Part shown: piece by piece, positions 8,392 to 52,593 of the stretch
How the letters are laid out: each line of letters opens with the position of its first letter
Position numbering within the stretch: the stretch's first letter is position 1
DNA from: Utricularia gibba
Taxonomy: Eukaryota > Streptophyta > Magnoliopsida > Lamiales > Lentibulariaceae
DNA length: 64,000 nt
Assembly: GCA_002189035.1 (NCBI GenBank)
Contig: CM007989.1
Span: forward strand, 7,483,501 to 7,547,500
Reading direction: 5' to 3'
Program-made: the position numbers and the translations under genes
The notes under the pieces: generated by a model
Told to the model about the DNA's origin: nothing
Seen by the model: only the letters and a program-made list of their open reading frames with translations
The model's database searches: none

Positions 8392-9802
8392 ATGGCGACT
8401 ACGCAGCAGCCGGGGGATATCGAGAGCCGCGGAGGGGAGATAAGCCTGCGGTGGATGTGATCCGGAGTGGGGACAGGGGTTGGGTTTCATGGCTGGTTCC
8501 GTTGATTGTGGTGGCGAATATCATTGTTTTTGTTGTGGAGATGTATGTGAATGACTGTCCCAGACAGATCAGGAACTTTGATGGCGGCCAACGGAGGTGC
8601 GTCGCCAGGTTTCTCGGACGCTTCTCGTTCCAGCCTCTGTCGGAGAACCCTTTGTTCGGTCCTTCATCTTCCACGTGAGAATCAATCCTCTTTTTCTCTT
8701 AATCCTTATAAAGGTCAATTTGATGTTTGATTTATTCCGTTGGGTTTTCTTGCTATATACGCTTTTTTTCTGAAGAAGGTTGCCGGTGTTGATTCTCTCA
8801 TGTTTTCTCTTTATTTATCATAATGAATTGGGGATTTTCCACTAAAGTAAGTCAATTCTTGTAGATTAGAGAGGATGGGTGGCCTGAATTGGAGTAGAGT
8901 GGTCAATGATCATCAAGGGTGGAGGTTGATCAGTTGCATCTGGCTACACGCTGGTCTTATTCATTTGCTTGTCAACATGATAAGTCTCATCTTGATTGGT
9001 GTCCGCCTCGAGCAGCACTTCGGCTTTGGTAAGGATCTAAGAGAATCCTAAGGCCAGGGCCTTTTTTCCTGAAGTTTTAATTCTTGCTGTTACCAACTGT
9101 TGTTTCTCTCTGCCAGTTCGAATCTGTGTGATCTATCTGCTGTCTGGATTTGGCGGAAGCATATTATCCTCACTGTTCATACGAAACGCTGTTTCTGTTG
9201 GTGCATCCGGTGCACTCTTTGGCCTTCTTGGAGCCATGCTATCTGAGCTGATCACCAACTGGTCTATTTACACTAACAAGGTGCTTATATCCTGTCAAGC
9301 AAATCTCATTCAACCTTCTTGCTCTCTTACGACTTGATCCTGTTAATTCTTCCTGGATATGCAGGCTGCAGCCTTAGTCTCCCTAATAGTCGTGGTCCTC
9401 ATCAACTTAGCAGTTGGGATTCTCCCCCATGTTGACAACTTCGCCCACATTGGAGGATTCCTGACCGGCATCCTCCTGGGCTTTGTTCTTCTTCCCCGTC
9501 CCCAGTTCGGATGGCTGGAACGCGCAAATCTCCCCCCGGTGCCCGTGCACGATCAAAATACAAGCCGTATCAGTACATTCTGTGGGTCATCTCCCTGGGG
9601 CTGTTGATTGCAGGGTGAGTAAAGCTGTCTGTACATGTAGATCCCCAACAGTGAATCTGGGTTCTCACCCCAAATCCTTCCACGCAGGTTCACCGTCGCC
9701 CTGATCATGCTGTTCCGCGGTGAGAGTGGATACGACCGGTGCCACTGGTGCCGGTACCTGAACTGCGTGCCCACCGCCAGCTGGAGCTGCAATGAGCGTT
9801 GA
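8392..9802 (+). CDS. Rhomboid-like intramembrane serine protease (RBL2-type), two apparent frame breaks
   Basis: Five exons (8392-8674, 8865-9028, 9117-9280, 9365-9614, 9688-9802) match plant RBL2-type rhomboids, Golgi/endomembrane proteases that cleave within membranes. Visible are a first helix ([14 protein letters not shown]), the conserved [19 protein letters not shown], the loop [13 protein letters not shown], the catalytic serine motif GASGALFG, the catalytic histidine in [12 protein letters not shown], and a Cys-rich tail ([12 protein letters not shown]). The reading frame breaks twice. The ATG at 8392 opens [17 protein letters not shown] but is one frame off from the conserved body, and exon 4 loses frame in the C6 run at 9532-9537. 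Restoring one base at each site gives a continuous protein of normal length, so consensus errors are likelier than a pseudogene. The next in-frame ATG lies after the first helix. Confidence 0.87.
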
Positions 9803-10186
9803 ATCTTTCTTTCAGCTGACTTCTTTGATTTTCTATGTAAATGGTGCTTCCCGGCTGTTCATTTCTTGAGATATGCGTGTTATTGTATACTATGATTGCA
9901 GTCCCATTCCCATAATAAAATATCTTTGTTCGTTTGATACAAAAAGTTGAATATGAGTCCTTTTTAGTCTAAAAATTTTAAAAATATTTTTTTATTTTTT
10001 TAAAAAAATTTAAAATAACCTCAATTTCTACGTTTACGAGAGTGGGGGGTAAAATGGTAATTATCCGGTGTCGTCTTGGATATTGTAATAACGTGATTGG
10101 GCCAAGGCGGTGGGCCGGTCCATCTATAAGTTACTCGATTTATTTGGTTGCCGACGCCTTCACCCTGTCATTCTGGAGACAGAGTC
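9803..10186 (+). other. Intergenic: rhomboid 3' end and NRPB6 promoter
   Basis: A poly(A)-signal-like AATAAA occurs near 9914, followed by AT-rich DNA. TGGGCC-type site II motifs lie near 10097-10118, about 70-90 bp before the NRPB6 ATG. Confidence 0.45.
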
Positions 10187-11218
10187 ATGGCGGACGATGA
10201 CTACGATATGGACGGAGCGTACGTGATTTTTGCTTTCTTGGATGGGGTTTATCCTTCTCTACTGGGTTCAAGAGTAGTGGCCTTTGTGTGTTTCTGTTGT
10301 AATTTTTTAGTTGGTTAACCTGTGAAACCCTCGGTTGTTTAGGTATGAAGACGAGCCTCTGGAGCCGGAGCCCGATGTGAGGATTATTTGGTGCCTTTGC
10401 TTTACTTGATTTCATTGTTTTGGGAGGATTTGCTTACGTGATTTTTTAATCGTTTACAGGAAGGCGCTGAGGTGGAAGATGATAAAAACATCGATGGTGA
10501 CGATGCTGATCTTGTCGAGGGCGAAGGTGATGATAAGCAGGAACACGAATCAGTTGAGCGGCCTCGTAAAACGTCCAAGTACATGACGAAGTACGAGCGT
10601 GCCAGAATTTTGGGGACTAGGGCACTGCAGATTAGGTAATTTGATGATGCGTCTTCGGTGATGAGTGGCTTATCTTTGGGAAAATTTTGTTCTTGGTGAT
10701 GATTCTTTGTCTTCCACAGCATGAACGCTCCGGTTATGGTTGAGTTGGAGGGTGAGACTGACCCCCTTGAGGTAATCCTATTTGTTCCATTAGTAACATG
10801 AGCGAGGGATTAATTCCTTCGTGGCTCTGCAACTCCGGTACAAGGAAAGACTAGTATTTCTAAGAATTCTGCTAGAATTTGAATAGAAGAATAAACCAAC
10901 ACTCCTAGATGCTGCATTTCATGTTATTTGTTGAATCAAACATTGGGATTCTTTAGCACCTTGAAGACAAGTCTTACTTATCTGTTGCTTGTTCGACATC
11001 AGATTGCAATGAAGGAGCTCAGAGAGAGAAAGATACCATTCACCATTCGCCGTTACCTTCCTGATGGAAGGTAAGAAGATCTTTCCCTTGATTGTTTCCC
11101 AATTTCCCCATCTTCCTGTTGTGGCTAACTCGTTCTTTTTCTCCCTAGCTATGAGGATTGGGGCGTTGACGAGCTCATAGTTGAAGACACCTGGAAGAGG
11201 CAAGTTGGAGGTGATTGA
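10187..11218 (+). CDS. NRPB6: DNA-directed RNA polymerase II/IV/V subunit 6 (RPB6/RPABC2 family)
   Basis: Six exons (10187-10218, 10343-10376, 10460-10635, 10720-10771, 11003-11070, 11149-11218) give 143 residues, the normal length. RPB6 is a small subunit shared by nuclear RNA polymerases that clamps the largest subunit. The N-terminal half is very acidic ([11 protein letters not shown], then EVEDDKN). The conserved C-terminal fold starts at [19 protein letters not shown] and continues through [36 protein letters not shown] and [10 protein letters not shown]. The site II motifs upstream fit a housekeeping gene. It converges with the dihydrodipicolinate reductase gene, 168 bp between stop codons. 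Confidence 0.97.
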
Positions 11219-11385
11219 GTCCTTTCTGATTGTGGAAGCATGCTGCTTTTGTTGTACTTGTTAGGAACCCATTTTCTAGTTATGGGGGTGAATCCCAAGT
11301 ACTGATATCATCAATCAATGAGCGAAAGCCATATAAAAAAAAAATGTGTTCTTCATCTCTTGCGTTCCATCAAATCAAGTTGTTT

Positions 11386-12906
11386 CTACAACAACTTTTC
11401 CAAGCCATACACCAGATTCTGCGAGCAGACATGAGGAACTTATTTCAATGAGCTCTCAACAATGGCGTATTTCAGCCATGAATGAACATTTAGTTTTACC
11501 TTGAGTCGGATGACTCTTCTGATGGCAAGAATCAGCCCCGGCATGAGAGATTGCACGTCTGTGACATCATGTTTCAGGGTATATATCTGCCAAGCCAACA
11601 AAAATAACAACCTTGAGGCATCCATCATTCATTTTTTATACTTCCAAGAACATAGTTTGTTTATGAAATAAGCCAACCTCCCCGGGCCGTGAGAAATGTA
11701 CAGTTGTGCTACCGGGGATTCCGGGAAGAACCAAACTGTGCACCCTGATTCCATCCTCTCCCACAACTTGACCCCTGGCCTAGAAAAGAGGCATTACAAA
11801 ATGTGAGTTTCCATAAGCTGAAAAATGCGCACAAGGCCTTCCTTCTTCCTACCGCAACATCTGTTGAGATATCTTCCTTGTTATACATCAGCCCAAGGTT
11901 TGTGAGATTGTTGGCTATTTGTATAGCAGTAGGCGTGGGGAAATTCTGCCAGAAGTAACCAAAAGCTAGTAACTTGGAACAAGGTGCACTTGTCATAGAG
12001 ACATTCCAGATGGGGCTTACTTCCTCAGCAGCAGTAGGCCTTGATTCAACTATCTCTACGTTGTTGTAGTGAAAACAAGCTGAGATTGCTGCTTGCTGTA
12101 GTAGCACTGATCCAATTGAGAGCGTTGGCGCCACAAGACATCCCTATTGGATACCCCATGTTAGAGATGTTCAACCCGGATCCAAAATCTGCTTGTTTAG
12201 TGTGGAAGTGTGCGTGTGACCTCTGGCCTCACCATGGTGGCTTTCTCACAGAAAGCCGACAAAGCGTAGACAGTCTCCATTTTGATATGGGGCACATGGA
12301 CGACACTTCTCATTCCAAATGCTGTTGCCTGAGCACATACACCAAGGGAATGGAGATTATAACATTTGCAGAGGATCCAGAGGAGATGTATCGAACTAAA
12401 CCTGTTTGACGTTGTCATAAACTGTTGAAGGGTCTGTGAAATCGACAACTACTGCTGCTTCATTTTGCTGGGAGATGGAAGCCAGCACCATCGTGAGATC
12501 ATTCAGGATTGGAATCTCCAGCGCCTCCTCCAAGTTGCTTACCTGTTATTCAAAAAGCATTGATAGATGAAATCCCAATACCCCAGTGTCGTCGTTTCAG
12601 GCTAACCTTGCCTATATCTTCTCCGACGCGGTGGGAATCAATGGCACCGACGATTTCCATTCCCCGCGCCCTTGTCACTGCCACCACCGCCGCCTTCCCG
12701 ATTTCTTTGGTCGCCCCATTCACGATCACCTGAACGAAATGAAACAACGAGAGCCCGGGATTTCCCTTAATCTTTTCAAACAATTGATCAGACAATGCCA
12801 ATGGTACCTTAATATTGCTCGGAGAAGGCCCCATCGAGCAAGATACTCTAGGAAGAAATGGTCTCCGTGGTTTATAAGCCTGGAGCTTGAAGCTGAGTGC
12901 TTCCAT
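11386..12906 (-). CDS. DAPB: 4-hydroxy-tetrahydrodipicolinate reductase, plastid (lysine biosynthesis)
   Basis: Nine minus-strand exons (12808-12906, 12607-12729, 12402-12542, 12233-12328, 12021-12143, 11853-11945, 11678-11779, 11500-11586, 11386-11418) encode 298 residues. The enzyme reduces dihydrodipicolinate with NAD(P)H in the diaminopimelate route to lysine, in plastids. The dinucleotide-binding start VIVNGATKEIGKAAV (about residue 34), VVVDFTDPSTVYDNV, the APTLSIGSVLLQQA segment and FHYNNVEIVESRP are all present, ending in the plant tail NLVYGLEKLL. The N-terminal extension before the Rossmann fold is only ~33 residues, shorter than I recall for Arabidopsis, but is basic and Ser-rich like a transit peptide. 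The frame stays open upstream to about 13098 without another ATG, so 12906 is the first possible start. Confidence 0.95.
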
Positions 12907-13148
12907 GGCTACTGAAGAAATTCGAGCTTCCGTATCAGAAACAGGATAAGGTTCCCTTTTATTTGCAGACTTAGCTGGGCTGAGGATAAGGTTAATGGCC
13001 TTTTCATTTTCGTACAGCAGCCACGGAAACAATGTACTGTACTTTGTAGAATCCTCATCTGGTTCCAATCTTGTATGTGAAGTAGTACAGATGGGCAAGA
13101 ATGATAAGAAGGCTACAATGAAACGAGCTATTTTTCACATTGAGAATT

Positions 13149-14833
13149 CTACTGGGAGAGAGGCTTGAGTTGTTCGTAGAGTAACCATAGCAGATAACCG
13201 ATGAGTGTATCTCTCAGCAAGTCTCGAGATAGGGAAACCAGCCAGCTCGAGCTTTCTGTTCGAGGAATATTTCCGGTAAGGTCTCGGAACCGGAGGTTTC
13301 CTTGATCTGAGATGAGGGAGTAAATGACTCCGTTCATGTGCCCCCTTCCCATCACTCCTACTACGTTCTTGCTCTTGTTCACAGCTTTGCTTCGCTTCAG
13401 GGACCAAGCTAGAAACTGGGTATGCAATAGTAGAAATCAGGAACCGTTGAAACTCGGATGTAGTGCACATTAAACACATACCACATCTCGTTCATGAATT
13501 AAAGAAGGAAGCAGGGGTGGATATGCATGGCTTAGTTGCTCATAGAGCTGGAAATGGCTGTTTTCATCTCTTGATTCCTGAGCGAAATAATGTTGAATCA
13601 AGAAGAATGGAATAATCGTGAGGTTTATTGCATGTGAAAAAAACTGAACTATCAACCTCTAATGCTTTCTTTGAAAGTTCTGTAGATGTTATTCCACGAA
13701 TGGCCGCTGAAACGAAGCTGAGTTTCTCCTTCCATGTCAATGAATTCCATGCTCTTCCAAGCTGAAAAATGGATACACTGAAACATCTGTTATACAAAAC
13801 AAGTAGATGTCGAGGAAGGTACTGACAGTGATCTCTATTGGACGATCTCCCAGCACCAACTGGGCACCAATCTCTTCACAAGCTCTACGAGCTGCGCGAA
13901 ACTGGAGTGATTGTTCAATCATCTGACATTAGAAAATAATTAAGATATCTATTTTTTATTGAATTTACCTCTTCACCGAAGGGTTGATTGATTTCCGAAG
14001 ATAGTTTTGATGACAGAGTGGCCAAGAGCAGCCGTAGTGCTAGCGCCGTTTGGCCGCCTACAGTGCTCAAAAAGCTCAGGAAGTTCACTGGGAAACATAA
14101 GTTGTGGCATATAAAAACTGATAATGCTAACTAACCCAAATTGACACTTCTGCTGACAGCGCCCAAGAATCCATTCCCAGTTAGAGAAAACATGCTGGCA
14201 CTAAGCTTCTGTTTCTGGTTATCCTTCTCATCTGTGTACATGATCCCAGCTCTGCAAAACAACTGAAAATTGTGATGTTAAGCCGGTGACACTGAACATG
14301 AGCATCAGACCACTTGTTTTCTCAATTGAACATTCATATCCTAGAGAAATATTCATTATACTTCGTTTCCTAAATCCATTCCAGGAAAAATGTTCGACAA
14401 TACGGCATTCAGAGGTCAAGACTCGCCTGCTTTTACAAAGCTCAACAACAATATTTTCAGGCTTCACAGCTCTTATAACCCTTTCAACATGGGAAGCAGA
14501 TTCTTGTGAAATATGCGATGTTCCAATGATCCAAATAACCTGAGGCTCCACAAATTCACCTCTCCAATCCGGAACGGGGCCGTACTGCCTTTTCTCAATC
14601 ATGACCAACTTTCCACTCTCGGCCAAATCAAACAGCTCTGGGTATGATTCCGCTATGTACGCCGTCGACGATTCAAGAACCTCGTTCCTAAAATCGAAAT
14701 CCTGCGGAGGGGGGCGAACCACGGAAGCCGCTCTGCATCTGATCGCCGTCACGGCGTTGACTCTGATATCCAGATTCACTGCCCGGTGGGGGTTATGCAG
14801 GCCCCACGAGACAAATGAAACTGCAGAAGCCAT
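13149..14833 (-). CDS. TraB-domain protein with plastid-type N terminus
   Basis: Seven minus-strand exons (14427-14833, 14136-14251, 13969-14087, 13827-13922, 13657-13761, 13482-13577, 13149-13415) give 401 residues. TraB/Tiki-type proteins share a fold related to erythromycin-esterase-like metallohydrolases; plant members are little characterised, though one paralogue is an ER-mitochondria contact protein. The conserved blocks are WIIGTSHISQESA (GTSH motif), IVVELCKSR, GGQTALALRLLLA, EEIGAQLVLGDRPIEIT (GDR motif), and NVVGVMGRGHMNGV near the C terminus, with a hydrophobic segment before the end (LIGYLLWLLY). Residues 1-40 are rich in Ser/Arg/Ala and lack acidic residues, as in a chloroplast transit peptide. 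Intron 1 has a GC donor (CAG|GCGAGT). Activity and substrate are unknown. Confidence 0.92.
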
Positions 14834-14937
14834 TGCTCAATGAGAAACAGAGAGAGGGAGAGAGATGGTAAGAAATACAGGCCTCAAGATGGGCGGATAA
14901 GAAACCTATTGGGCCTAGCCCCAATTGTAAAACTTGA

Positions 14938-15075
14938 GCCACGTGGCACTGCTTTTCTGGAGCCAGGTGTTTCACGTGATGAAACACGTGGTTGACGCGC
15001 GAAGGCCATTTTATTTGACCGTTAATTAACTGTCACCGACCCGTAAGACAAACAGTTGCACAACGACCCACGCGC
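14938..15075. promoter_or_regulatory. G-box (CACGTG) and CGCG-box cluster upstream of DREB1
   Basis: CACGTG occurs at 14940-14945 (inside the palindrome GCCACGTGGC), 14973-14978 and 14985-14990, and again at 15336-15341. ACGCGC, matching the CAMTA/CGCG-box consensus, lies at 14995-15000 next to a TTGAC W-box core, and recurs near 15070. G-boxes bind bZIP/bHLH factors (ABA, light, PIF) and CAMTA sites drive cold induction of Arabidopsis CBF genes. The motifs are seen; stress-responsive control is inferred. Confidence 0.55.
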
Positions 15076-15496
15076 CGCCGCCCACCACACGGACGGCAAC
15101 CACCGCAGCCCCTCAGCTGTCAACAAGCCTCGCCACATTGACCATATTCCAACACATTCTATTTGGAAAACAAATATTTCCCATGGCATAGTCAAAATTG
15201 AAAATCTTATATTGAAATTAATAATTATTATTTAAATTTATAATTTTAATAACGTATAGTAATTCAAATAATACGAAAAAAAATAAAATTAAAAAAGGAA
15301 AATGGAAAAAGGGTCAACGTGGGGGAGGAATGGGACACGTGTAGAGCTTTCAGTCGCACTCAGCACGAGCAGCTTCTTCTCTGCTCCAGCTGCTGTTTTC
15401 TGGGTCCCCACTGCATCGTTTCCCCAGGCTGTTACCTCTTCATATTCCGTGTTTTCGCGTACAAACCGCAGCTTTCTATTTTCACGCACACCGATC

Positions 15497-15506
15497 TGTA
15501 TATATA
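15497..15506 (+). promoter_or_regulatory. TATA box of the DREB1-type gene
   Basis: TATATATA lies about 80 bp upstream of the ATG at 15583, giving a short leader of around 50 nt. Confidence 0.6.
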
Positions 15507-15582
15507 CTTTGGATTCAACTCATGTTTCCCACCATCATTTTCTTCTTCATCCTGCACTCCAAAAGTCAGCTGAGTTTCAGTG

Positions 15583-16305
15583 ATGGAACTGATGATGCAG
15601 CAGAATCTCTCCAGCTGTTGCTCGGATCCGTTCCCCGGTGTGAGTGATGTATTCTGGTCGTCTTCGCCGGAGAATGGGAGCTCCGGGAACAGGACCAGTT
15701 TCTCCGACGAGGAAGTGATTCTGGCTTCCAACAATCCGAAGAAGAGAGCCGGCCGGAAGAAGTTCCGAGAGACACGTCACCCCGTCTATCGAGGCGTGCG
15801 GAGACGGAACTCCGGGAAGTGGGTTTGTGAGGTGAGGGAGCCTAATAAGAAGACTCGGATTTGGCTGGGGACATTCCCCACCGTCGAAATGGCAGCGCGT
15901 GCACACGACGTGGCAGCGATGGCTTTGAGGGGGAAGTCCGCTTGCCTGAATTTCGCAGACTCCGCGTGGCGGTTGCCGGTGCCGGCATCGTCCAATCCCA
16001 AGGATATCCAGAGGGCGGCAGCAGAGGCCGCACAGAATTTCCGCCCAAAATCGACCCAACCCGAAGAATGTAAGGAAACGCAAGAAACCGAATGCTCCTC
16101 CTCTTCCTCCTCCTCCTGCGCCACCGTCGCTCCCACTGTGGAGTCCCCGCTGGATTCGTTCTTCCCAGATGACGATACACTGTTCGGAATGCATGGATTG
16201 CTCAACAACATGGCGGAGGGACTGCTCATGGTGCCACCGCCGCCTTTGTACTACGATGACATGGAAGATGGCTACGACGTGTCACTCTGGAGCTTCTCTG
16301 TCTGA
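15583..16305 (+). CDS. DREB1/CBF-type AP2/ERF transcription factor
   Basis: A single-exon gene of 240 residues, as is normal for DREB1. These nuclear activators bind DRE/CRT elements (core CCGAC) and control cold and dehydration genes. The CBF signatures flank the AP2 domain: [16 protein letters not shown] (about residues 52-67) before it and DSAWR (126-130) after it. The AP2 domain (68-125) shows [39 protein letters not shown] and CLNFADS. The acidic C-terminal half includes a Ser run and ends with the LWSFSV motif of CBF proteins. The preceding GTG is not used as a start; the ATG is at 15583. The promoter carries clustered G-boxes and CGCG boxes. Within DREB1 the exact orthologue is unresolved. 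Confidence 0.95.
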
Positions 16306-17478
16306 ATTATCTTCCCTCGACGAATTTTGGGTGTGATGGGTACGGACATACAACACAGCAGAGTTCCCTCGTTGTAAAACACACAAAAAAAAGTGTGAAT
16401 TGACATGAATTCTTGCATTAAGTTCAGCAGACGAATACGCAGCTGATGCCCATACAAAGATTAACTCTACTGCAATGGCGTTTGGTTTCAAAACTACCCA
16501 GAACACGCCCACTAACATTCTGTTTAGTTTAAGGTGAGAAAGCAGCAGCTTTATCAAAAGAGATTTCCATTTCTGATGGATGGAGGAACATGCAGTGCAC
16601 TTCCTGGCTTTCGTTTCTGGTGAAAGAGTTGGCACCGGAATGTGTCATGTCTGGTTTAAATATGACAATTTACCCTCCCTCACGCTACAGTCAAAAAGCT
16701 GAGGAGATCCCATGAATGCTTGCTATCCCATCCCTATTCGAGGGAAAAGTTGTGATGCAATATTAGTAGCAATGTTATTAGAATAATTGTTCTATTTAAT
16801 AACATTCTTTTTTTTATTAGATACCATCTCAAAGTATATAGTCTTTCTTACATTCTAAATCTCTTAAATATTCAATATACTTGTTAAATATCACCTCGTC
16901 TCACCACTAATTACTTGTACCAATTTGATTTTAATATCAAATATCACAATTCATTCTCATATTACATGATATTGTCTATTTTAAATACTACATCTTTATG
17001 ATTTTACATTTTTTATGAAATCATGACTCGTGCTCATATTACATGATATTATTCATTTCGAATATACAATCTTTATGATTTTACATTTTATATTTTCCAT
17101 GAAACCATAGATCATGTTATTCTTAGTGGATGATATTGTACAATTCGAATACTCAATTCTTATAATTTTACGTTTTATGTTAAATCATGGATCATTCCAA
17201 CTTTAACTTTAAGAGCACTACTCCAGTTGACTCTTCATGAAAGTGTCCCCGCACCCTTGATTTGCCCATGGATAGATGATGGACACGGCGAGGAGGTGAG
17301 TAGGGACTCGGTACTAGTGGATTCAACGGTCAAGTTAATGTTGACTCAATTATTGATTTGTTTAATTCATTTTGGACTGAGCCCTAAATTATTCTTCTCG
17401 TCCTCAAAACAGTATTAAATACCACCCCATTCCTCCACTCTCCCATTTCCACCCCCCACCCACCCCCCCACTATTCCA
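16306..17478. other. Intergenic: DREB1 3' region, AT-rich repeat DNA, LysM promoter
   Basis: After the probable DREB1 3' UTR, the DNA becomes very AT-rich from 16740 and contains a degenerate tandem repeat (annotated separately). The last 70 bases are C-rich and form the LysM gene leader, with a TATA-like TATTAAATA near 17411. Confidence 0.5.
16956..17196. repeat. Degenerate tandem repeat, about 80-bp unit, three copies
   Basis: Three diverged copies start near 16956, 17033 and 17117 (77, 84 and ~80 bp). Each runs through a TGATATTxT segment, a TTTATGATTTTACxTTTT segment and an AAAxCATxxxTCxTG end. A partial copy may precede the first. It is AT-rich and non-coding. Confidence 0.6.
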
Positions 17479-19960: not shown

Positions 19961-19964
19961 GGGG

Positions 19965-20006
19965 TATATAGGGGGTGTAGGCTGGGTGGGGGGCGGGGGT
20001 GGGGGT
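19965..20006 (+). promoter_or_regulatory. TATA box followed by a G-rich tract before the TCP gene
   Basis: TATATA at 19965-19970 is followed by a G-rich block at 19971-20006. The part at 19984-20006 has four or more G-runs of at least three separated by single bases, so the non-template strand of the leader could fold into a G-quadruplex. Motifs are seen; function is inferred. Confidence 0.5.
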
Positions 20007-20071
20007 CCTATTCCAAGCTGTTAGATAAAAAAGTGGGTCCAAAGAACTCGAAGCCGCGGGGAGACGTATAC

Positions 20072-25699: not shown

Positions 25700-27395
25700 C
25701 AATCCATCACTGCAAACATAATTTATGTTTCTATGATCAAACAGGTTTTATTTCAGTCAAGGAATCATTTTGGACGACAATGATGCTTCAGTCCAATGGA
25801 TATCATTCAACACGAATTACTATTCACTACCCAGTGGTTGGATTCTACTAAAGCAGTGTCTGCAATAAAACAAACTGCTACCTCAACCCATTCGAGCTCC
25901 ATGTTCCTTCTCCGTTTTCGAAACAGCAGCTCTCGCATATGGTTGATCAAGATCAAGACTTCTTCCATCTGGGCGCCATCCCAAATGGCGGGGGGAGACT
26001 GTGGCCTTCTTTCCAATCTCTCCCAACTTCTTGATCATGCAAATTCCGGTCAATCCGCGTTCCCCCCCCCCCCCCCGCGAAGTGATATACCAAATCCCCA
26101 TTTCTCGGGCATAGAAAAAGGAAGGAATGAGATCCTCCTAACAAGCTTTCTCCGACTCAGCACGACTGGATCCCTGGCCCTGCTGATACACGGAACGAGC
26201 TTGTTTCAGAGGTGACTAAGAAACTAGAAACCCAGCAATTCCATAGTTCAAAAATTCAAATGCGAAGTTGTAAGGTGCACTATGCGGCCTGTGAATAGAA
26301 TAGGTTAATAAAATAAATGTCGGTGACTCGGTAGCCCATCCCATTCTATTTAAAATTTGAAAAAGAATCACTGTTGTGTATTTAAAAATGGGTTGAACGT
26401 ATTTTTTAATTTAATCACTTTTACAATATATTTAATCATGTTTAATAATTTTTAATTATATTTAAAATAGTTTTTAAAAAAATTAGTATTTAAATAGATT
26501 GAATTCAATATTCGGTTTAACAGGATCTAATCTTTCAATTAAATGCGTGATTTTAGAACTTTCATATTTAGACATTTGAATATTGTTAAATGTGTATTAT
26601 TTTGGACAATCATGCAAGAGAAAGATCTGGTCAACGTCATTTGTTAAAATAGGACGGTTAGATTTTTTTTGACCCCGCTACTTTTGGGAATTTCAAATGC
26701 CTCCCAAAAAAAGAGAAGAAAATAAGCAAATTCAAATTCCTTTCGTCCACAGATATAAAAATGGTTTCTTGTCACTGTGGAGAGTACCAACGGTCGAATT
26801 CCTTTTTTTGAATCTCTCGCTCCCAGATTCTGATTTCTGCTAGTGTTCTTGAGTTCAAGCCTCCATTTTGCGATTTTTTCATCATGTAAGTTGAATATTG
26901 CATCTAAGTTGTTTTGGTTTGTTCAGGAAATTTCGGTAGGTTCCGTTTGCGTTTTGCAAGTTTCGCGAGAACAGAAGGAAAATCGGAGGAGAGTGGTTGC
27001 TTTGTCAATTTTTGTTTGTTCCTGTGAATCTTGGTAGGGCGTGTATAGGATTTTTGTTGCGAAGTTTAAGCGGAGATCTGTCCTCCGATTTGTTGAGCTT
27101 TAGCTCTCCAATTAAGCGAAAAATTGGGTTTTTTTTTGCCGGAAAATGTGAACTGGGAGCGCCTTCTCCAGTTTACCCAAATTTTAGGTTTCCTCATTCC
27201 AAATAGATGTTAATGAAAATTAGTTTAACTGATAGCATATCCGCTGCCACGAGCATGGTCTGAGTAACGAAGATTTAAAGGATGACTTAAATCTTCATTT
27301 CGTTGTGAATTGCGATATTCAGCTCATCAGCTGGCTTGTCTCTGCAGCTCAGTTGTTTAAAGGTCAGTGAGTGTGGGCTCAGTTGATTTTATCCA
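25700..27395. other. Intergenic: MADS 3' region, AT-rich DNA, MAP65 leader
   Basis: A 15-base C homopolymer lies at 26062-26076. 26290-26660 is AT-rich. From about 26800 the sequence looks like a 5' leader, with a likely leader intron ending at CTCTGCAG near 27347. No other gene is seen. Confidence 0.45.
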
Positions 27396-35292: not shown

Positions 35293-37640
35293 TCAGCTGC
35301 AAAGTTCAGACAAAATGATCTCCATGGATGGCCTTTCATCAGGGCACTCGTTGGTGCACCACACAGAAAGTTTGGAAAGCAGTGCAGCTTCAGACTCGCA
35401 AACCTGCCCATGGAGATTTGCATCCACAAAATCGAGGCTACCGGACTCGGCCGATCCACGCGTGGATGCGGCGAAGTTCAACTTTCCAGAGAGAATCTGA
35501 AAAACAAGCACCCCGAACGCGTAAATGTCACTTTTTTCGGTGAAACGGCCAGTGGTGGTGTATTCAGGGGCGAGATATCCCATCGCAGCACTGGCTTTCA
35601 GGGCGGAGAAGACGGTGTCGTTGGTAAGAATCTTGTAGAGACATGAGTCAGAAAGCATTGGCTTTGAGTTGTCGTCGATGAACACATTCTTGGCTGAGAT
35701 GTTTTGGTGAACAAGAGAAGGCTTGTTCACCTTGGAACTGTGCAGGTACTCGATACCTGCTCAGATTCAAAAGAGAATGATAAGATAAATGTACAAGAAA
35801 GCATGGAGGAAACCTCATATTTGCAGAACAAACCTTTGGCGATGCCTTTGACAATGGAAACTCTGGTGTTCCAGTCAAGAATTCTGCTGTCTCCATCGTT
35901 GAGGTCAAGGTGCTGAAACAGGCTTCTGCTAGGAATCAAATCATAGACAAGGAAGCATAATCCACGCCCCTTGGAGCAACAGAAGCCTCGCAACTTGACC
36001 AGATTTTCATGCTTCAAAGAAGTGAGCATATAGAGTCCTTTCAAGAACTCGGCTTCTTCAGACTTGCAGCAACTCTTTGTGATTTTCTTAACAGCCACAG
36101 CAGATCCATCTCTCCAGGTTCCTTTGTATGTCACTGAGTAGTTGCTCTTTCCGAGGAAATTCTTCTCAGCAAAATACTGAGTCGCATTCTCCACCTCCTG
36201 GAGATTAAGCCTGAAGTTCTTCATAACTTCCTGTGAGAATCCAAAACGCCGGTCCTCAGCAAGAGGATCCCACCCACTGGAATACTCCAAACTAACAAGG
36301 GGGGAGCCGTTTTTGTCATAAAACTCATTGCTGTTATCTGTGCTGGGTCGGCTGTTCCTCGTGTCGCAGGAACCTCCAAGTTTCTGCAACCGCATCTTGT
36401 GTACTGAGAAAAGTACTGTTCCCACAACCAATACAACAAAGGCAAATACTACAAATCCCAGCGCCACGGAAGCCTGTGGAGCTTTGGATCCCTCTGAGCA
36501 AGAATTCCCAGTGCAATTCAAGTTCAAGTCAGCTGTTTCGGGGATGTTACGAGAGGGAACTCCACTCGACCCTCCTGAGTAATAGGGCTCCGGCATTTGG
36601 GAATCAGGTCGAACGGAATCACTACAGGTTCTCAGCAACGGAAATCCAGAACCACATAAACCAGGGTTATTTTCGTACCGGAATCCATCGACCAGCCTCT
36701 TCAATGCTTCAAGCAGGACACAAGAAAAATGTCACAATCTACTGGAAAAGTTGTCAATGAGAAAAGAACTGCGCAGAAAGTTACTCATGTTAAATCAAAT
36801 TTTCGATTTTTACCCAGAGGCACGTTTCCAGACAGAGAGTTGTTTCGGACATCGAGGATTGCAAGCATCTGAGCTTCCGCTAGTTTGGAGGGAATCGATC
36901 CAAAGAGACGATTAACACTCAGGTCAAGTCTCATCAAGGCTGGCATGTCTCCTAAGCTAGCAGGGATTGCGCCAGTCAACAGATTGGATTGCAGAGCAAG
37001 CACATTGAGCTTGTTCAAAGAACCAAGCTGATTCGGTATACTCCCAGTGAACTGGTTATAGCAGAGCTGCAAAACTACATTTTGGGAAAAAGGAGAACAA
37101 CTAAAATCAGTTCTCATACCCCATGATTGGAGTTCTCCAAAAAAAGATCGAAACTTTACGAGGAAGCTACTCTTATAAAACAGAAGGGTGGTTTTTTGCA
37201 TGCTTAAACTACGAATCTACCTTGCAAACTCTGCATGCTTCCAAGTGCAGCCGGAATCCCCCGGAAAGATTATTCACATTCAAGTATAAATCACTGAGCT
37301 CGGACAAGTTGGCAACTTCCACAGGTATTTCTCCATATAGAGAATTATAATGCAGATACAAACCGGTTAATTGTTTCAGCCCACCGACTGCCGGCGACAG
37401 TCTCCCTGCGAGCCCTCTTCCTTGGAGTGAAATGTTAACCACCTGCCCTTGCTCATTGCAAGCCACACCCTCAAAAGTGCCTCCACATGGGTCACCGGAA
37501 GCCACCCACGAACCCAAATGAAGATTTTCAGGGTCAAGGCTCGCCTTCAAGTCGAGTAACGAAGCCAACTCAGAAATGCAGTCGGCTGAGGAGATCCCAA
37601 CGAAGATAAGAGCGAGTAACAGCAACGGGGAGGAACCCAT
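35293..37640 (-). CDS. LRR receptor-like protein with pseudokinase domain (At5g51560/At4g22730-like), one frame break
   Basis: Four minus-strand exons (37221-37640, 36814-37074, 35834-36706, 35293-35756) give about 672 residues once one missing base is allowed. Order: signal peptide (LLLLALIFVGISSADC), LRR N-cap (LDLKASLDPE, DPCGGTFEGVACN), four to five LRRs, juxtamembrane NPGLCGSGFP, one helix (VALGFVVFAFVVLVVGTVLF, about 250-270), then a kinase-like domain. The kinase keeps VAVKK and GYLAPEYTTTG but has HQN for HRD, DSC for DFG and a degenerate glycine loop, so it is probably catalytically dead, as in related plant receptors. Exon 1 loses frame in a C5 run at 37258-37262: NNLSGG continues as out-of-frame sequence, while adding one base gives NNLSGGIPAALGSMQ and fits the phase of exon 2. 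Confidence 0.9.
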
Positions 37641-39995: not shown

Positions 39996-40775
<780 letters not shown>

Positions 40776-42952: not shown

Positions 42953-44116
42953 ATGAACGCCCTTTCGCAGGTTCCTCCAGGCTTCAGATTCCACCCAACA
43001 GATGAAGAACTGGTTGATCATTACCTGAGGAGGAAGGTTTCATGTCGCCAATTAGATATTGACGTCATCAAAGACGTCGATCTCTACAAAATCGAACCTT
43101 GGGATCTCCAAGGTACCAACATAAGCTGGCATGTTAATCCCCTGTGAATTTTTGGTCTCAGTTCGTGACCGGGGCTTCTTGTGTCTGTAATGGTGTTTCA
43201 AGAGCTTTGCAGAACAGGAATTGGAACCGAGGAGCAGAATGAGTGGTACTTCTTTAGCCATAAGGACAAGAAATATCCCACGGGGACGAGGACAAATCGA
43301 GCGACAGCAGCCGGGTTTTGGAAGGCAACCGGGCGAGATAAAGCCATTTACTCCAAGCATGACTTGATTGGGATGAGAAAGACTCTTGTGTTCTACAGAG
43401 GGAGAGCTCCCAATGGCCAGAAATCGGATTGGATTATGCATGAATATCGTCTTGAAGCAGATGAGAAGAGAGCTCCTCAGGCAAGCGTCATGTTCCTTCA
43501 ACAACTGCGTAGCTTTGGGTTTCAAAATTAGGAGTTCCACCTTTGATTCATGCAGGAGGAAGGGTGGGTTGTCTGCAGGGTCTTCAAGAAAAGAACAGCA
43601 GCAATGCGCAAATGCAGCGAGCACGATTCGCCTCTTTGGTATGACGACCACGTCTTCTTCATGGATTCACCAAGGCAAACATCTCAGACAAATGCCGTCT
43701 ACCATAGCATTTCTTACAAGGGGGAATTGGACTCCTTACAACAATACAGTGGAAACGCCAATGGGTTGGAACTTGATCACTTCATCCAGCTTCCGCTTCT
43801 GGAGAATCCTAAGATGAGGACGCCACCGGGTGTCAACTGCACCTCAGTTCCATGCATGGAGATGATCAGTGCAACGAGTAGTCGCTTCCGAGTTATCACA
43901 TCGGTTTCAACAAAAAATAAGGATTGGAGGGTTCTTGACAAGTTTGTTGCTTCTCAGCTCAGCCACGACCATGTCGCCAAGGGAAACGAGGTGTTCGATG
44001 TGGTTAACGAATTGAATCTTGTCCATGGAAACATGAAGAACCAACAAGTTTCCATGGACACCGCTTCAACTTCTTCCTCATTCCACCAGGTTCATCATCT
44101 CTGGAAGTCAAGCTAG
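42953..44116 (+). CDS. NAC transcription factor, VND (vascular-related NAC domain) group
   Basis: Three exons (42953-43112, 43203-43480, 43556-44116) give 332 residues. VND proteins switch on xylem vessel differentiation, secondary wall and cell-death genes. The NAC domain (about 8-160) shows subdomains [88 protein letters not shown], and WIMHEYRLE with [12 protein letters not shown]. The VND/NST-type pattern [12 protein letters not shown] is clear. The C-terminal region has LLENPKM, then [14 protein letters not shown] and TASTSSSF, shared with VND4-6-like proteins. The second intron (43481-43555) uses a GC donor, CAG|GCAAGC; using it restores PQ|EEGW as in other VNDs. Confidence 0.94.
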
Positions 44117-45203
44117 AACCTGCAACAGCATGATGCTCAATAAGGCTTCTTTCGCGTAAATACATAATCTCATGAAAACATGACCACTAGCTATTCGGAT
44201 TTAACATGAAGAAGCTACTCCTGTAATTATTCTTAGAAAAGAAATTGATCGCATATACCCATGATAGCATATTATATATCATTGTGATGTTTTTTAGGGT
44301 TCTTTGTCTGTCAAACGAGCAGATTCATCAAAAGAAACTTGTCTGTGTGTGCTCTCTTTGGTGGATTGATTTCAGCCTAACGAAGTGTGTTCCTTTTCCT
44401 GTTGGGGCTAAAGAAAAATGGCGTCCCTTTGAAGGACGGACTCATGGCATCACTTTATTGTTCAAAAGGTTGTCCTTGAAACTTTATCCGCAAGTGAACT
44501 CCAACCAAAGGGAAATAAAAAAAGCTTTCTTTTCTACACTGCAAAGGGAACGCAATGTGAACCCATAGAATGCTTTCAGCGAGTTGAAAGAAACAACTTA
44601 CATTCTTCCATCTTTAGATATTCATACTACTTGTCGGTGCTAATGATCAGCATCTTTTTTTTAAATAAATTGCAGATTGGCTCCTCTGCTTCAAAGAATC
44701 CACACGCATTCATCAAATGTTCACACGGAGGTAGTATGTGTGAGTAATAAATAGGCATTTTGGGTATATATGGTGGGGTTTTGTGACAGAGAGATCTGGC
44801 AGAGCACAGGCAGGCAGACAGCATGCCGTGGCTGAGTGATTGATGTTTAGCCTCATGTGCAGTTCCAATGGTTCAAAAGTTGAAGACATAATGATGGGAG
44901 GAGCCACTTGAGCTCCAGAAAGCACATACAGAATGAACAGTAGTGAAATTTTTTGGCAAAACTCCACGGGAGCTCGTCATTGCAATTTTCTGACTGATCT
45001 TGGGTAAATAAAAATGACCTCCTACGGTTTTTCAGGATCCTATGAAAAAAAGCAAGAAAAAAAGACAACTTTTGAACAACTAGACGCATTTTGCTTGATC
45101 CTGCAAAACAGGAAGGTGATAAAGGTGTCTCAAAATGCAATGACCCACCACAACCGGGTGCATGCTGAAGAATGCGGGGATTGCTTAACTTTCGACATGC
45201 TAA
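44117..45203. other. Intergenic between NAC and SKU5-like genes
   Basis: The probable 3' UTRs of the two convergent genes and neutral sequence between them. No gene or clear repeat is seen. Confidence 0.45.
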
Positions 45204-48118
45204 TCAGATGCTAATTGAATGCAAACAAAATACAACTAACACTGCCAATAGAATCGAGGATATGGATTGAGGAGCTGAAGAGAATTCGCCATTGTACCTG
45301 AAAACGATGGAATGATTGTTAGTGTTTTCCTTCTGAGCACTGCACTTCCATGTGTTCCATGAAGTGTTGAAAAGATACCTTTGCATGTTGCGCAATGCGC
45401 CGCAGTATAGTGCATTGCCGGGTACAGGATTCACAGTTATGTTGCTGGTGTCTTCTGGATTGACTATTCTCATGTAGGTTTCCTGGCCAAGGTACCATCT
45501 CTCCAGATTTTCACTCCTCAGATTCCAGACACCAACATTGTCGAGGGAAACATATACTGCAGTCCATCCTCCAACAAAAACCTGGGAATAGACGACGGCC
45601 AATGACATCAATCAATCTAAGATGGGAAGAACCCGGGCACTGGATTTAGTGAAACCAACCAAATCTCTAGTATGAGTGCAAAATGAACAAGAGGGGTTTT
45701 CCTCTAGCTAAAATGAACTCCAATAGCCATCATGGCACTTGAGAAAAAAGATTTAGCGTCGCTTCATATCCTTACCTGCACCGTGGAGCGGGATATGGCG
45801 TCCCATCTGTTGTAAGACTCTCTGCAGTTTTCATTCCATTCACCAAATCCCATCCTATCAACGCACAGCATATTGTATCAGAAAAATGGGGATCACAACT
45901 CGATGCCTAACTAATATAAGGCTGTGGTTGGAGCACATACCCAACTACAAAGAATGAATAGCCATCAAGATGAAATGTCTGAACAACAGTGTCATTGTTC
46001 TGCAATACTATTTCAATAAACCCCTTATATGTTGCATTTATGACAGATATGTCTCTCACAGGTGCCTGATCCCAGGAGTTAGTGGGGAAGTCAAGCTTGT
46101 ATACACCCTTAACCTCGTATGCATCAGCAAGATTTATTGGTGTATCAGGGTTTACAAATGATATTCCATTATATGCAGCTCGAGATACCCCTTCAATCAG
46201 CATTGGAGGTAGCATTCTGAGAAAATAAACATCTGTGACATTGATGAATCCATAATGAAATGAACCTTGTGGATTGGGACGAGCCCCGCTTGCAGAACCA
46301 TTTTGCCTGATCAATAATATTGTGGATGAGAGTACATTAATCATGAAGAAAATCAGAATTACTGATCCAGGTACCTGATAGATAAGGCTTGATTCATGGA
46401 ATAATATGTATCATAGACATCATTGGGAGGGTCAGGAAGTGGACCGGATGCTGGTCCGTTGGAGTTGGAGTAATGCAGAACGGCAGCACCAGTCACTCTC
46501 GTCCAGAGAGATTCATTTACGAACCTTGCACTTGCTACAATGTAGTAATCACTGCTTGCATTCTGGTCTGTGGAGAGAAGAAAGGAGTAAGACTGGCCAA
46601 CATGGATGTCCAAGCTACTGTAATTCTGCATTGTAGTGTAGTAGCCCTCTGTTTCTACCAAAAGCAAATTATGGTTCTGAATTCGAAAGTTCAAACATGT
46701 TGAAGTTCCCACATTATGTACTCTGAGACGATATGTTTTTCCTGCGAGTTTGTAAAATGAGTCAGACTGCAGAGAAGAAGCTCAGAGCTTAGCCAATGCT
46801 AAGCAACTTACACTTTTCCAGCAGAAAATTAGTTACCAAAAACTTACCAGGGTCCACACTAAATGATTCATATTGAATTTCATCTGGAACAAGACTGGTG
46901 TTATATCTGTATGGACCTTTCCCATTAATCAGAACACCATCCGGCACACCCAAATTGCTCCCACTGTCAAGTGCAGCGCTTAGAGCCTGCAACGATTATG
47001 AAAGAGGTTAAAATGATGATGCAGTAAGGTAGAAACATGTCCACAATCATCAAACATAAACACAGACTGAGTGATCACCTACCGTATGATTACGAATATA
47101 CCAGTCACCAATAATGATAACAATTTCCCCATCTGGGGTAGCAAAAGGCACTGGAATGATTTCTCTGTTCATTATAACAAAGGGTCCAAACCCACCAGAC
47201 GCTCTCTGCAGGTTCAGTGATGGGAAGTAAAAGAAGCTACCAATCTGATCCTTAACCTGAAACTGATAGGTCCAGTTCCATCTTGGGGGTATTGGGCAAT
47301 TCGTACCAAGAAGACCATCTTGCCATGACGAGCGGCGCATTTGAATACCAGACCTATAGAAACAGAGCAACCATTTTCTCAGGAAAGTGGAAAGACTGGA
47401 AAATTAAGCAAGTTGTTCATCAACCACTGATGCCATACCATGTGACCAGTAGTTGCTCGTTTAGCTTATTCTTGACATTCACCACAACGTTGTTGTTTGT
47501 TGTGACATTAATAACAGGACCTGGGAACTGCTTGTTAACTGCTATAATCTACAAGAAGCAATCTGTATGTAAGATATCATAGCAAACTAGCAGAATGATA
47601 AACCCACAGATTGCAATGTAGAAAGCAAAATGAAGAAAAAAGAAAACATAATCAAGATATAACATGTCCAATGGCCAACAAAACCCGGGACCAAAATTTG
47701 TTAATTAGAAGAATATATTTGCAGGGCCACCCTTTCTGTATTGTCTACCATGGTGGTCCTCCTCAGAACTTGCGAACCGGACCAAGGGCCCCCTTTGTAT
47801 CCATCACAGATAAGAATAAAAGAATGAAGTAAAGAAACACAGTGATCCAGATCCAAAAGGAGGAAGCAAGATACCTTCTTTACGTCCCATTTACCGAGGA
47901 ATGTAAAAAAAAAAGGGAATCTCGAAAAGACATAAACCAAGAATCACAATTCAGACCCCAGAAATGGGGAGCAGTGGCAAGAAGTGTTTGACCTGTTGAG
48001 GTACTCCAAGCGGAGAAACGGTAGCGTAAGAGAACTCCAAGTCGAAGTACACATAAGGGTCAGCCGCAAAAGAAACACCGATTACCAAACCAAACCATAT
48101 CCAGAACAAACACCCCAT
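45204..48118 (-). CDS. SKU5-similar (SKS) multicopper oxidase-like protein
   Basis: Nine minus-strand exons (47993-48118, 47439-47548, 47083-47353, 46848-46986, 46375-46741, 45941-46306, 45776-45854, 45379-45581, 45204-45297) give 584 residues, matching SKU5 (~587). SKS proteins are apoplastic glycoproteins related to ascorbate oxidase and laccase, involved in cell expansion. A signal peptide (FWIWFGLVIGVSFAAD) precedes the cupredoxin domains: FPGPVINVTTNNNVVVNV, WQDGLLGTNCPIPP, KTYRLRVHNVGTS, and VFVGGWTAVYVSLDNVGVWNLRS. Most copper-ligand His residues of true oxidases are absent (for example WSGIQ replaces the WHG copper site), as in other SKS proteins. Many NxS/T sites are present. The last exon ends in a hydrophobic stretch (ILLAVLVVFCL) preceded by small residues, consistent with a GPI-anchor signal. 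Confidence 0.94.
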
Positions 48119-49814
48119 CCCCCAATCCCAGTAAATCGGATAGGGAATGGAATGCAGTCAACAACGTTTCCGTTCCAAGGCCTCCCCTCACTTGAGTGAA
48201 TTCAGCCAATCGAATCGTCAAGATTCTACAACCCTCTTCCGTATATGCAAAATCCTCGTCCTTATCAGTGTGACATTGGCCAAAGAGATAGAGAAAAGAG
48301 GAGGTGGTCTCTCGTCTCCGATCTCCGCGGCGGTTACGTTATTCTATTTTGCAGGCGCAGCGTTTGAAATTACTCTCCTCCGTCACTAATAGAGTGCGGC
48401 GTGATGATCGTTGCTGCACACCGGCTACTTACCCAGCCGGTCCGCGCCCCAACAACCCCAAACTCTGACCCGAATAATTGTATCTCATGAGTGGAAAAAG
48501 ATTCTGTTATAATCCACCGGCTGTTACTGGCTAGCGTCGTGGCGGATTCTTTTTGGTGATGCCATGTCAGCTGGGCCCATCTCCCCAATGTGTGGATTAT
48601 GTGGACCCCACTAGAATAATCATCCAGCCATCTTTCTTTTTTGGCAAGTACATAAATCAGTGACCTTAAAAATGTAATTGGTTGAACAAGGGCAAATCGG
48701 TACTTATGCTTTTGATATTTGTACTATTTTTTTGGTAAATAAAATTTTCAACTTTTTAACATAAAAAAGTTAGAAATATATAATTTTAAGTATAAAATTG
48801 AAATGACATATTTTTATATAATTAATTAAAGTATTGAATGAATAAAATTATTATTTACATAAATTTAAAGCATTAAATGCATTATCATCCTAAGTTCATA
48901 ATCATTGATACCTCATAAATTATATATTCTTTAATAAATTACATAATGAGCATTGAACTTATTTGAAATATTTAGTATTTTTTTGATTTCAAATAATCTA
49001 AAGTGAAACATGTGCTACTATATTCATAGTCCTTTTTAATTTTTTTTCATATCTATACCTCATCTTGATTTTAATATGGACACAATCCACTAAAGAATGA
49101 TGAATTGATTCCTAAAACCTTTTCAATTCTTTGCATATAGTAAAATCTATCACATGTGATTATTCATATTATTGGATCAACCATTGTATCCATTTCATAT
49201 AGTTGGTCTCCACCATATCATATCCTTGTTTTGTTGACCAGCAATTCATAGCTTTTACATGGTATATTTCTCCAATATGATCTTTATCTATCTTTACTTG
49301 TTCTAATTGCTTTAGGACAAATGAGATAGAGTTGAAGCAAGAATAACTCTTCTACTTGATGGATTGGTTCAAAATTCTATTCATATGTGAGGTGGGGTAA
49401 TATGGAAAACAATAACAATGGACATGGTATGATCATTTAGAAAAATGGTCATTGAATCTTTTTATCTCAAACATTATAATAAAAAATTTATAAATACAAT
49501 GATTATTTTTTTCACATATTCAAAATACAATGACCAAATATATAATACATTATGCTATGGCATGCTCCTTCCTGCTCTGTATTTGACACTGTGGGAATCA
49601 TTCTTTGAATGTATTTGAGATTTGGGTTTGGAGATCCATTTCTCTGTGGGAACAGCAATGAAAACTGATCCATGGTTTGAATGGCCTTTCTCAGTAAAAG
49701 TGTGGTGCGTATACACTGTGGTGGGTACTGCAACTCAATACAGAAAGCTTCCTGCACGCCTTAGGCTGACAGCATGCAGTAGTAGTGCACAAGAATGGGG
49801 GGGATAATCGGCAA
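48119..49814. other. Intergenic (1.7 kb), largely AT-rich
   Basis: 48120-48600 holds the SKU5-like leader and promoter. 48700-49550 is AT-rich without genes. 49550-49800 is the probable 3' UTR of the invertase gene. Confidence 0.45.
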
Positions 49815-52593
49815 TCACAAGGCCTGATCGGAGGAGAACAAATCTCGAATGCCTGCGGATTTCATCTTCCACACCTTCACCGTCGCCCTGACTCGCGCAC
49901 CCGTCGCATTGTTGAAAAGCAGAACTTCCGATGGACTGTCGATCGCTTGGGTTGGATAAATCCGAGACGTGATCACTGTTCTTCCTGCCTGAGCAAAGCT
50001 CTCCACGATCGAATGATCCACCTACACCGCAATCATAAGGTTAGTTTTCAAGGAAAGTTTGAAGCATTGCACTACGCCATGAACTCACCAGCGATCGGAT
50101 TGTCAGCTTTTCGCCTTTGAGGACTGGGACTGTGTCTCCGAACACTCCGCTATTCACGTCCAACGCCTTCGAGGACCTGAATTTACAGAAGTTTCTGAGT
50201 GTCTTTGCCAGGGGAAACAGGGGGGGGGGGGGTATGGTATGGATGCTGTAAAACAACTGACCTCAACTGATCGGCGCAAAAATGGTATTCCGATTGACCA
50301 TTGGGCTTCTTGGCGATGTAGAAGTATACGGGAGTTAACTCAGATAACTGCTTGTAGGCGAGCACCACAATTCCGAACGGTCCCAGCAGTCCTCTGCTGG
50401 CTGCGCCGCCGCTGGTGGTGCAGCTGTAGCCGGAATCGGCGACACCCACTGCCGCAGCATCATCTTCCTCGATTTCGAACGACGCCTCTATATCCAACTA
50501 CATAAAAGCCCAGATTGTTAACGACCTTTTTCCAGAGGAGCTGCGAAAAATATGTTATCGAACCTGTGAATCACCGTCGACGTGGAGGGGCACTGTGGAG
50601 CCCGGCTCAAGCCCCACATCCTTGAATTCAAAACTCTTCTCTCTCAAGCTCTCCACCTCCTCCACCGGCCATTGTATAAGATTTGTTCCCGTTTTCCGAT
50701 CAAGCACGACGGTTCTCGGTATGGACTGAATCCATCAAGTAATCGTCAGCACATCTCAATTATTTGAAGGAATTTGTTTAGTATTGACGGTTACCTGGAC
50801 GGACGCCCAGCCTTTGATGATGTCGACACGTTCAGCGTCAGTTTCCCTGATCCAACCCCACAAAATCCTCCTGTTCTTTTTCTGATCGTAAAACGTCTTG
50901 GAGGCGTAGTACTCACCGTAATCGTATCTCAGGCCGATCCCGACGTCCAAAGCCGGATCGTCCGGCGTCCACCGGTTCGACGCCGCGTCGTATGTCCCCA
51001 GAGCGTAATAATCGTGCTTATCATCATCCAAGCTCGCCTTCAACACATGTTTGAATCCAGGGCCGTTGGCCGACGTATCCGCCCCGTAGCCAGAATCCAC
51101 CGGAACCGGATAGAAATCGATGCACTCCCACATACCCGTACCCGGAACCGCGTGCAAGTACCCATCAAGGAGCTGGTACTCCACGAAATCGGGCGTCTCG
51201 TAGACGAGCGCTACACCCGTTTTGTTGACCTTCGAACCGATCACGATCCGCCACTTCTCGCCGTCGTTAGCGAGCCACGCGGTGGATGGGTCCCGGAAGT
51301 CCTTTTTGCCGATCCCTGGCGGCGGGGTGAGCACGGGATTAGAGGGGTGCTTGGCCCACTGGAGGAGAAGAGGGTCGGAGAGGTTGGCCGGGACGGCAAG
51401 GCACTGCACCTGACCGCCGTCGTTGGCGGCGCCGGTGTAGAGCATGACTATCCTCCCCCGGGGAGAAGTGTGGCTGAGCCGGTCCACACCCCCATGACAT
51501 CGTACCAGTGATCGGGAACCATGGAGTAGGGAAGATGAAACCAGTGGATCAGATCCCGGGAGACGGCATGGCCCCATGTTATGGTTCCCCACACAGCAGC
51601 CTCGGTGTTATACTGGTAGAACAGGTGGTACCATCCGCCGTAATACAACGGACCTGCATCCACAAATCCACCCAAAAATCTACAAATCAAATTCCGATAT
51701 CTCCTTCTGCCATACGTATTCACTTCATCGGCCCGACACGCCACCGCGTCGGTGGATCGGACCTAGTAACAGACCAGTTATATCTCCCATCGTTTTAGTG
51801 TAAAAAGGCAATACTGTCATTTCTGGGTAGGTGTCGTCGGTTAAACATGTGCGCATGTGTTTGTGCGCTGTGTGAGGGCAACATTCTGTAATAAAATACA
51901 GGATCGCCTTCGCCACTAAATTATTATATCCTGTAGCCATCGTGGCTTCGATAATCCCATCTCATATCAGAAAACGGTTGAATTGAAAAAGAAAAAGGCG
52001 ATGACTTGGACCACCCGCTAGAAGTTACAAAATCGTGATCCTCTAATCTGCGCATCTTTTGGGAGATGTCGTCCCGGACCCCCAAAGTATCAGAATTTCT
52101 GAACACGAAGGAGGTGTTTGAAGATACAGATGATTGGGTTGGGCTGTTCTTCTGGGGAGTTGTGTTTGTGTTCGGATAGTGTTTATGAAGTATCAGAGCG
52201 CTGTGATGCAGAAAAGTAGGTAGAAAAATGGATGAAGAAGAAGCAGAAGAAGAGACTTACCATCAGGATCTGGAGCGAGCGAGCAGGAGAGTACCAACGG
52301 GCCACATGAGAAGAGACACGAAGTTAAAACAGAAACTCTTGAGAATCTACAAGCGAAGAAACAAATCTTTCAAAGGGAAAACACCCACCGTTCATCCAGT
52401 TCTTGGAGGGCTGAAAGTGGAAGGCCGTCCTTTGCCACGACAGAACCGCGTTAGGCCAAGCGTAGGTCAACTCCCCGGCGCCGCCCACCCGGAACACCTT
52501 ATCCGAGACGCCTCCTCTCGACTCCGGTAGGCCGGCGGTGAGCACCAAAGACACCGCCAGCAATACAAACGGGAGACAACCCCTGCCGGCCAT
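49815..52593 (-). CDS. Acid invertase, vacuolar-type beta-fructofuranosidase (GH32), with 9-nt mini-exon and one frame break
   Basis: Seven minus-strand exons (52389-52593, 52261-52269, 50795-51653, 50564-50725, 50262-50497, 50089-50176, 49815-50021) give about 588 residues after restoring one base. The enzyme hydrolyses sucrose. Visible: hydrophobic N terminus ([16 protein letters not shown]), [20 protein letters not shown], the beta-fructosidase motif completed by the mini-exon as NDPDG (usually NDPNG), [26 protein letters not shown] and the acid/base motif WECIDFYPV. WECxDF with a bulky aliphatic residue is the vacuolar type; cell-wall forms have WECPDF. The N-terminal propeptide is shorter than in most vacuolar invertases. 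Exon 3 loses frame at 51455-51463 (C5 then G4 on the plus strand): SATLLPGG runs into a stop, while one added base gives GRIVMLYTG. Confidence 0.93.
52261..52269 (-). other. Nine-base coding mini-exon of the invertase gene
   Basis: On the minus strand CTCCAG precedes ATCCTGATG, which is followed by GTAAGT. It supplies Asp-Pro-Asp of the catalytic motif; the nucleophile Asp codon is split between exon 1 and this exon. A 9-nt second exon at exactly this place is a known hallmark of plant acid invertase genes. Confidence 0.9.

What the first reader, a model, noticed from the sequence alone, without database searches (positions are those of the whole stretch)
8392..51463. Systematic loss of single bases in or beside G/C runs across the window
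All five coding frame breaks found (rhomboid twice, LRR kinase, RPS20, invertase) are repaired by adding one base, and each lies in or next to a G or C run of four to six. No coding frame break was found elsewhere in intact genes. This directional bias is typical of homopolymer undercalling in long-read assemblies polished without short reads. Any automatic annotation of this genome would wrongly split or truncate such genes. Non-coding runs of C15 (26062-26076) and G13 (50220-50232) may be unreliable for the same reason.
Basis: inference. Interest (0 to 1): 0.6.

Follow-up and report, generated by a model that had tools for sequence, protein, structure and literature searches.

The report
Missing-base errors in a plant assembly
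The broken genes in this stretch are almost certainly sequencing and assembly errors: a long-read-only plant genome, probably the bladderwort Utricularia gibba, that drops single bases throughout, mostly beside runs of G or C, so many healthy genes look broken.

Summary
All five frame breaks are one base short. Four are firm: rhomboid C-terminal part, LRR kinase, RPS20 and invertase. The fifth, at the poorly conserved rhomboid N-terminus, is probable. All lie in or beside a G/C run of 4-6.

I tested the pattern genome-wide in the window's own assembly (100.09 Mb, 516 contigs; by size probably the PacBio/HGAP Utricularia gibba genome). A frameshift-aware aligner on 43 GRAS genes (15,286 codons) found 24 breaks in 17 genes, and 22 are one base short. 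G/C runs of 4 or more lie within 9 nt of 13/22 (expected 10%, p=2e-8). A/T runs are not enriched. Other families give about 15 missing-base breaks to 1 extra-base break.

Two redundant contigs of one locus differ more by single-base gaps (27) than by substitutions (20); one such gap cuts an intact 615-aa frame to 412 aa. An intact RPS20 paralogue carries one base more at the window's break.

Two corrections: about 40% of breaks are not beside a run of 4 or more, and the damage is genome-wide, about one per 2 kb of GRAS coding sequence. PacBio-only HGAP/Quiver assemblies are known to leave such errors. This is not biology, and the error type is known.

The parts
8392..8455 (+). probable frame break in the rhomboid gene, N-terminal part (one base short; exact spot ambiguous, G5 at 8412-8416 and G4 at 8434-8437)
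   Evidence: ATG frame ends in a stop before TM1; the TM1 frame has no ATG; paralogue L007 starts about 50 aa before TM1 in one frame
9530..9544 (+). frame break in the rhomboid gene, C-terminal part (one base short, at C6/GG)
   Evidence: sequence; located; the continuing frame matches the pattern of paralogue L006, '...FKAYQRVLWVISLILLI'
37251..37268 (-). frame break in the LRR receptor kinase (one base short, at G5)
   Evidence: LRRNT_2, LRR and kinase pieces in successive frames
40427..40439 (+). frame break in ribosomal protein S20 (one base short, at C4)
   Evidence: intact paralogue on C213 (L073) has one base more here
51448..51465 (-). frame break in the invertase/GH32 gene (one base short, at C4G5)
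26062..26076 (+). non-coding C15 run; length cannot be trusted
50220..50232 (+). G13 run in an invertase intron; length cannot be trusted
   Evidence: intron placement

Best explanation
The frame breaks are consensus errors of a long-read-only assembly, probably PacBio CLR reads assembled with HGAP, whose consensus drops single bases, preferentially in G/C homopolymers. The genes are intact in the plant. Shown here: the direction, the G/C-run context, recurrence across unrelated families and contigs, and disagreement between redundant copies of one locus. Inferred: the sequencing platform, the polishing history, and that each individual break in the window is an error.
For: 1. 22 of 24 breaks in 43 GRAS genes are one base short; 13/22 have a G/C run of 4 or more within 9 nt against 10% expected, 5/22 a run of 6 or more against 0.5%; A/T runs are not enriched. 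2. Several GRAS paralogues break at the same RPGGPP motif, a place rich in G/C runs, as a sequence-dependent error predicts. 3. Contig C316 against its redundant copy on C412: 27 single-base gaps against 20 substitutions in 25.1 kb of near-identical windows; at the GRAS gene the copy lacking one C in a C4 run loses a 615-aa frame. 4. The RPS20 paralogue has the base. 5. In-frame stops are nearly absent after frame-aware alignment (one in 17 broken GRAS genes). 6. Other families: about 15 minus-one to 1 plus-one, worked out by hand from the match tables. 7. Literature on the same pipeline: PMC4832174, PMC4888979, PMC5793159.
Against: No reads, transcripts or short-read assembly could be compared. 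The GRAS rate (about 5e-4 per coding base) is high for a Quiver-polished assembly at the stated 88x. Nine of 22 breaks are not beside a G/C run of 4 or more. One HSP70 break is identical in two redundant copies (C241 and C304), which a real mutation would also give. Some breaks may be real pseudogenes: RPS20 has an intact paralogue, so losing the window copy would be tolerable.
Confidence: 0.95

Rival explanations
1. The genes are true pseudogenes: the plant lost them by small deletions, as expected in a shrinking genome with many duplicates after whole-genome duplication.
For: Duplicates exist for some, e.g. an intact RPS20 copy on C213. A few loci carry in-frame stops as well (L051; the subtilase pieces).
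Against: 40% of GRAS transcription-factor genes would be dead, nearly all by exactly one missing base, with almost no stops or other decay. One of two redundant copies of a locus is intact where the other lacks a base.
Confidence: 0.03
2. Programmed -1 ribosomal frameshifting restores the frame in the cell. It would give the same direction.
For: The direction is the same (-1). Two of 22 breaks have an XXXYYYZ-type heptamer nearby against 3% expected.
Against: 20 of 22 breaks lack such a heptamer. Unrelated housekeeping genes are hit at arbitrary places. Paralogues and the redundant copy carry the extra base.
Confidence: 0.01
3. A real, lineage-specific mutation bias deletes single bases in G/C runs.
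For: G/C-run-specific, one-directional pattern.
Against: It would have to be recent and genome-wide, and tolerated in coding genes at about 1 per 2 kb. It does not explain why near-identical copies differ more by single-base gaps than by substitutions.
Confidence: 0.01

Closest known systems
Residual homopolymer deletions in PacBio CLR assemblies (HGAP + Quiver) before Illumina/Pilon polishing
   Same: Single missing bases; G or C homopolymers; frameshifts in otherwise intact genes (PMC4832174, PMC4888979)
   Different: The rate in GRAS coding sequence here (about 5e-4 per base) is higher than in the bacterial reports, which list 205 residual indels in 7.17 Mb and 561 deletions in a chromosome of 2.9 Mb plus plasmids
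Oxford Nanopore homopolymer compression
   Same: Missing bases in runs
   Different: As I know it, nanopore errors shorten long runs of all four bases; here A/T runs are not enriched at breaks and runs of T14, C15 and G13 survive in the window

Membership tests
Long-read (PacBio CLR) consensus deletion errors | breaks are nearly all single missing bases | tested here: met
   22 of 24 in GRAS genes; 5 of 5 in the window; about 15 of 16 in other families
Long-read (PacBio CLR) consensus deletion errors | enriched in G/C homopolymers | tested here: met
   13/22 against 10% null, p=2e-8; A/T runs not enriched
Long-read (PacBio CLR) consensus deletion errors | independent assemblies of the same locus disagree by indels rather than substitutions | tested here: met
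   C316 vs C412: 27 single-base gaps, 20 substitutions
Long-read (PacBio CLR) consensus deletion errors | the bases are present in accurate reads or transcripts | not testable with these tools
   no reads or transcripts held; only an intact paralogue and a redundant contig
Long-read (PacBio CLR) consensus deletion errors | assembly made from PacBio reads without short-read polishing | tested here: inconclusive
   size, contig number and contig lengths fit the U. gibba PacBio/HGAP assembly (PMC5793159), but the record is unnamed
Pseudogenes | further decay such as in-frame stops and mixed indels | tested here: not met
   one stop in 17 broken GRAS genes; almost no extra-base breaks
Programmed -1 frameshifting | slippery heptamer at each site | tested here: not met
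   2 of 22 sites

The most novel reading that the evidence does not exclude
The missing bases are real in the genome, and the plant either reads through them by widespread -1 frameshifting or has a strong recent deletion bias at G/C runs.
Probability: 0.02. Interest if true: 0.85.

Novelty: already known. Interest (0 to 1): 0.18.

Why it matters
Gene loss in miniature plant genomes is an active topic. In this assembly about 40% of sampled GRAS genes carry a frame break that is most likely artefactual, so counts of pseudogenes, truncated proteins or lost genes cannot be trusted without short-read or transcript support. One published claim from this species, a DCL3 lacking its N-terminal helicase, does not look like a product of this artefact: no helicase sequence was seen in roughly 7 kb upstream of the RNase III domains, and the authors confirmed the truncation by 5' RACE (PMC8333044).

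Tried and rejected
Redundant pair C241/C304: 2 kb identical, then diverging repeats, so uninformative apart from sharing one HSP70 break. UDPGT and tubulin searches: weak or intron-rich matches, little use for frame-break counting. Programmed frameshifting: tested by slippery motifs, rejected. Idea that the published DCL3 truncation is an artefact: upstream DNA read, no helicase frames seen by eye, idea dropped. The original U. gibba PacBio paper is not in the library. A search for primer sequences to confirm the species gave nothing usable.

Full report
What was claimed.

Check in the window. The frames were read from the sequence. In RPS20, exon 2 reads ...[10 protein letters not shown] instead of the conserved ...TTRKSPCGEG; an intact paralogue on contig C213 has one base more at exactly this C run. 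In the invertase, the frame before 51448-51465 matches residues 35-102 of the solved GH32 enzyme 3UGF and the frame after it matches residues 99-326; both are Pfam Glyco_hydro_32N. In the LRR kinase, the LRRNT piece, the LRR piece and the kinase piece follow on, with a one-base-short shift at a G5 (37251-37268). In the rhomboid gene, the C-terminal shift sits at C6/GG (9530-9544). The N-terminal shift (8392-8455) is probable only, because that end is not conserved. RPB6, DapB-like, TraB-like, NAC, ERF and sugar transporter genes in the window looked intact by eye.

Genome-wide test. The window lies in an assembly of 100,091,633 bases in 516 contigs. I wrote a profile-to-DNA aligner that allows frame changes and introns and ran it on GRAS genes, which lack introns as a rule. 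In 43 genes and 15,286 aligned codons there were 24 frame breaks in 17 genes. Twenty are cleanly one base short, two more are one base short by frame arithmetic, and two are of the other kind. Within 9 nt of the 22 missing-base breaks there is a G/C run of 4 or more in 13 (null 10%, p=2e-8), of 5 or more in 7 (null 2.2%), and of 6 or more in 5 (null 0.5%). A/T runs of 4 or more occur in 2 (null 13.5%). Several paralogues break at the same RPGGPP motif, whose codons form G/C runs. The rate is about one break per 2.1 kb of coding sequence.

Other families. From the coordinates of adjoining matches with no room for an intron I worked out frame offsets by hand. HSP70: C451, C496, C304 (the same break in its redundant copy C241), two on C255 and one on C1. 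KCS: C4, C402, C413. UDPGT: C4, C255. Subtilase: C81, C402, C414. EF-Tu-like: C151. All fifteen are minus-one. One tubulin-family piece on C1 is plus-one, with stops inside. Sequence around nine of these sites (counting the redundant C241 copy separately) shows G5-G6 in several and short or no runs in others.

Redundant copies. Contig C316 (38 kb) repeats a stretch of C412. In 25.1 kb of near-identical windows there are 20 substitutions and 27 single-base gaps, missing from either copy, 10 of them in G/C runs of 4 or more. At the GRAS gene, C412 holds a 615-residue open frame; C316 lacks one base of a C4 run and the frame falls to 412. From general knowledge, natural variation gives more substitutions than single-base gaps; here it is the reverse.

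What it is. The pattern fits residual PacBio CLR consensus errors. A P6-C4 HGAP/Quiver assembly needed 205 indel corrections, nearly all in G or C homopolymers (PMC4832174). Another had 561 single-base deletions after three Quiver rounds (PMC4888979). Size and contiguity match the U. gibba PacBio assembly (HGAP, N50 3.4 Mb, 88x; PMC5793159), but the identity is inferred and the original paper was not available.

Rivals. Pseudogenes would show stops and mixed indels; they do not. Programmed frameshifting would need slippery sites; 2 of 22 have one. A real deletion bias cannot be excluded without reads but is very unlikely.

Limits. The estimate rests on one family aligned in full; rates may differ elsewhere. 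About 40% of the missing-base breaks are not beside a run of 4 or more. The high rate for a polished assembly is unexplained; a mean coverage of 34x reported in a re-analysis of the PacBio reads (PMC8333044) may contribute.

Noticed in passing
G000 contigs C1, C2, C505, C507, C515: Contig lengths are round (8,500,000; 6,192,500; 3,452,500; 642,500; 267,500), as if contigs had been cut at rounded coordinates.
   Followed up: no
L076 (C213:2753500-2763400): DCL-type RNase III locus without a Dicer dimerisation match; a splicing-factor-like gene (read by eye) lies upstream and no helicase was seen. This fits the published truncated U. gibba DCL3.
   Followed up: partly
G000 C1:2666923-2677598: Four identical-scoring matches to an EF-Tu/eEF1A-type GTPase domain within 11 kb, in both orientations: recent duplication or misassembly.
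   Followed up: no
L065 (C241) and L066 (C304): Redundant copies share the same HSP70 frame break at a G5 run: systematic error, or a real allele.
   Followed up: partly
L020/L059-L061 (C316) vs L021/L062-L064 (C412): Small contigs can be near-identical redundant copies of parts of large contigs, so gene counts may be inflated.
   Followed up: partly
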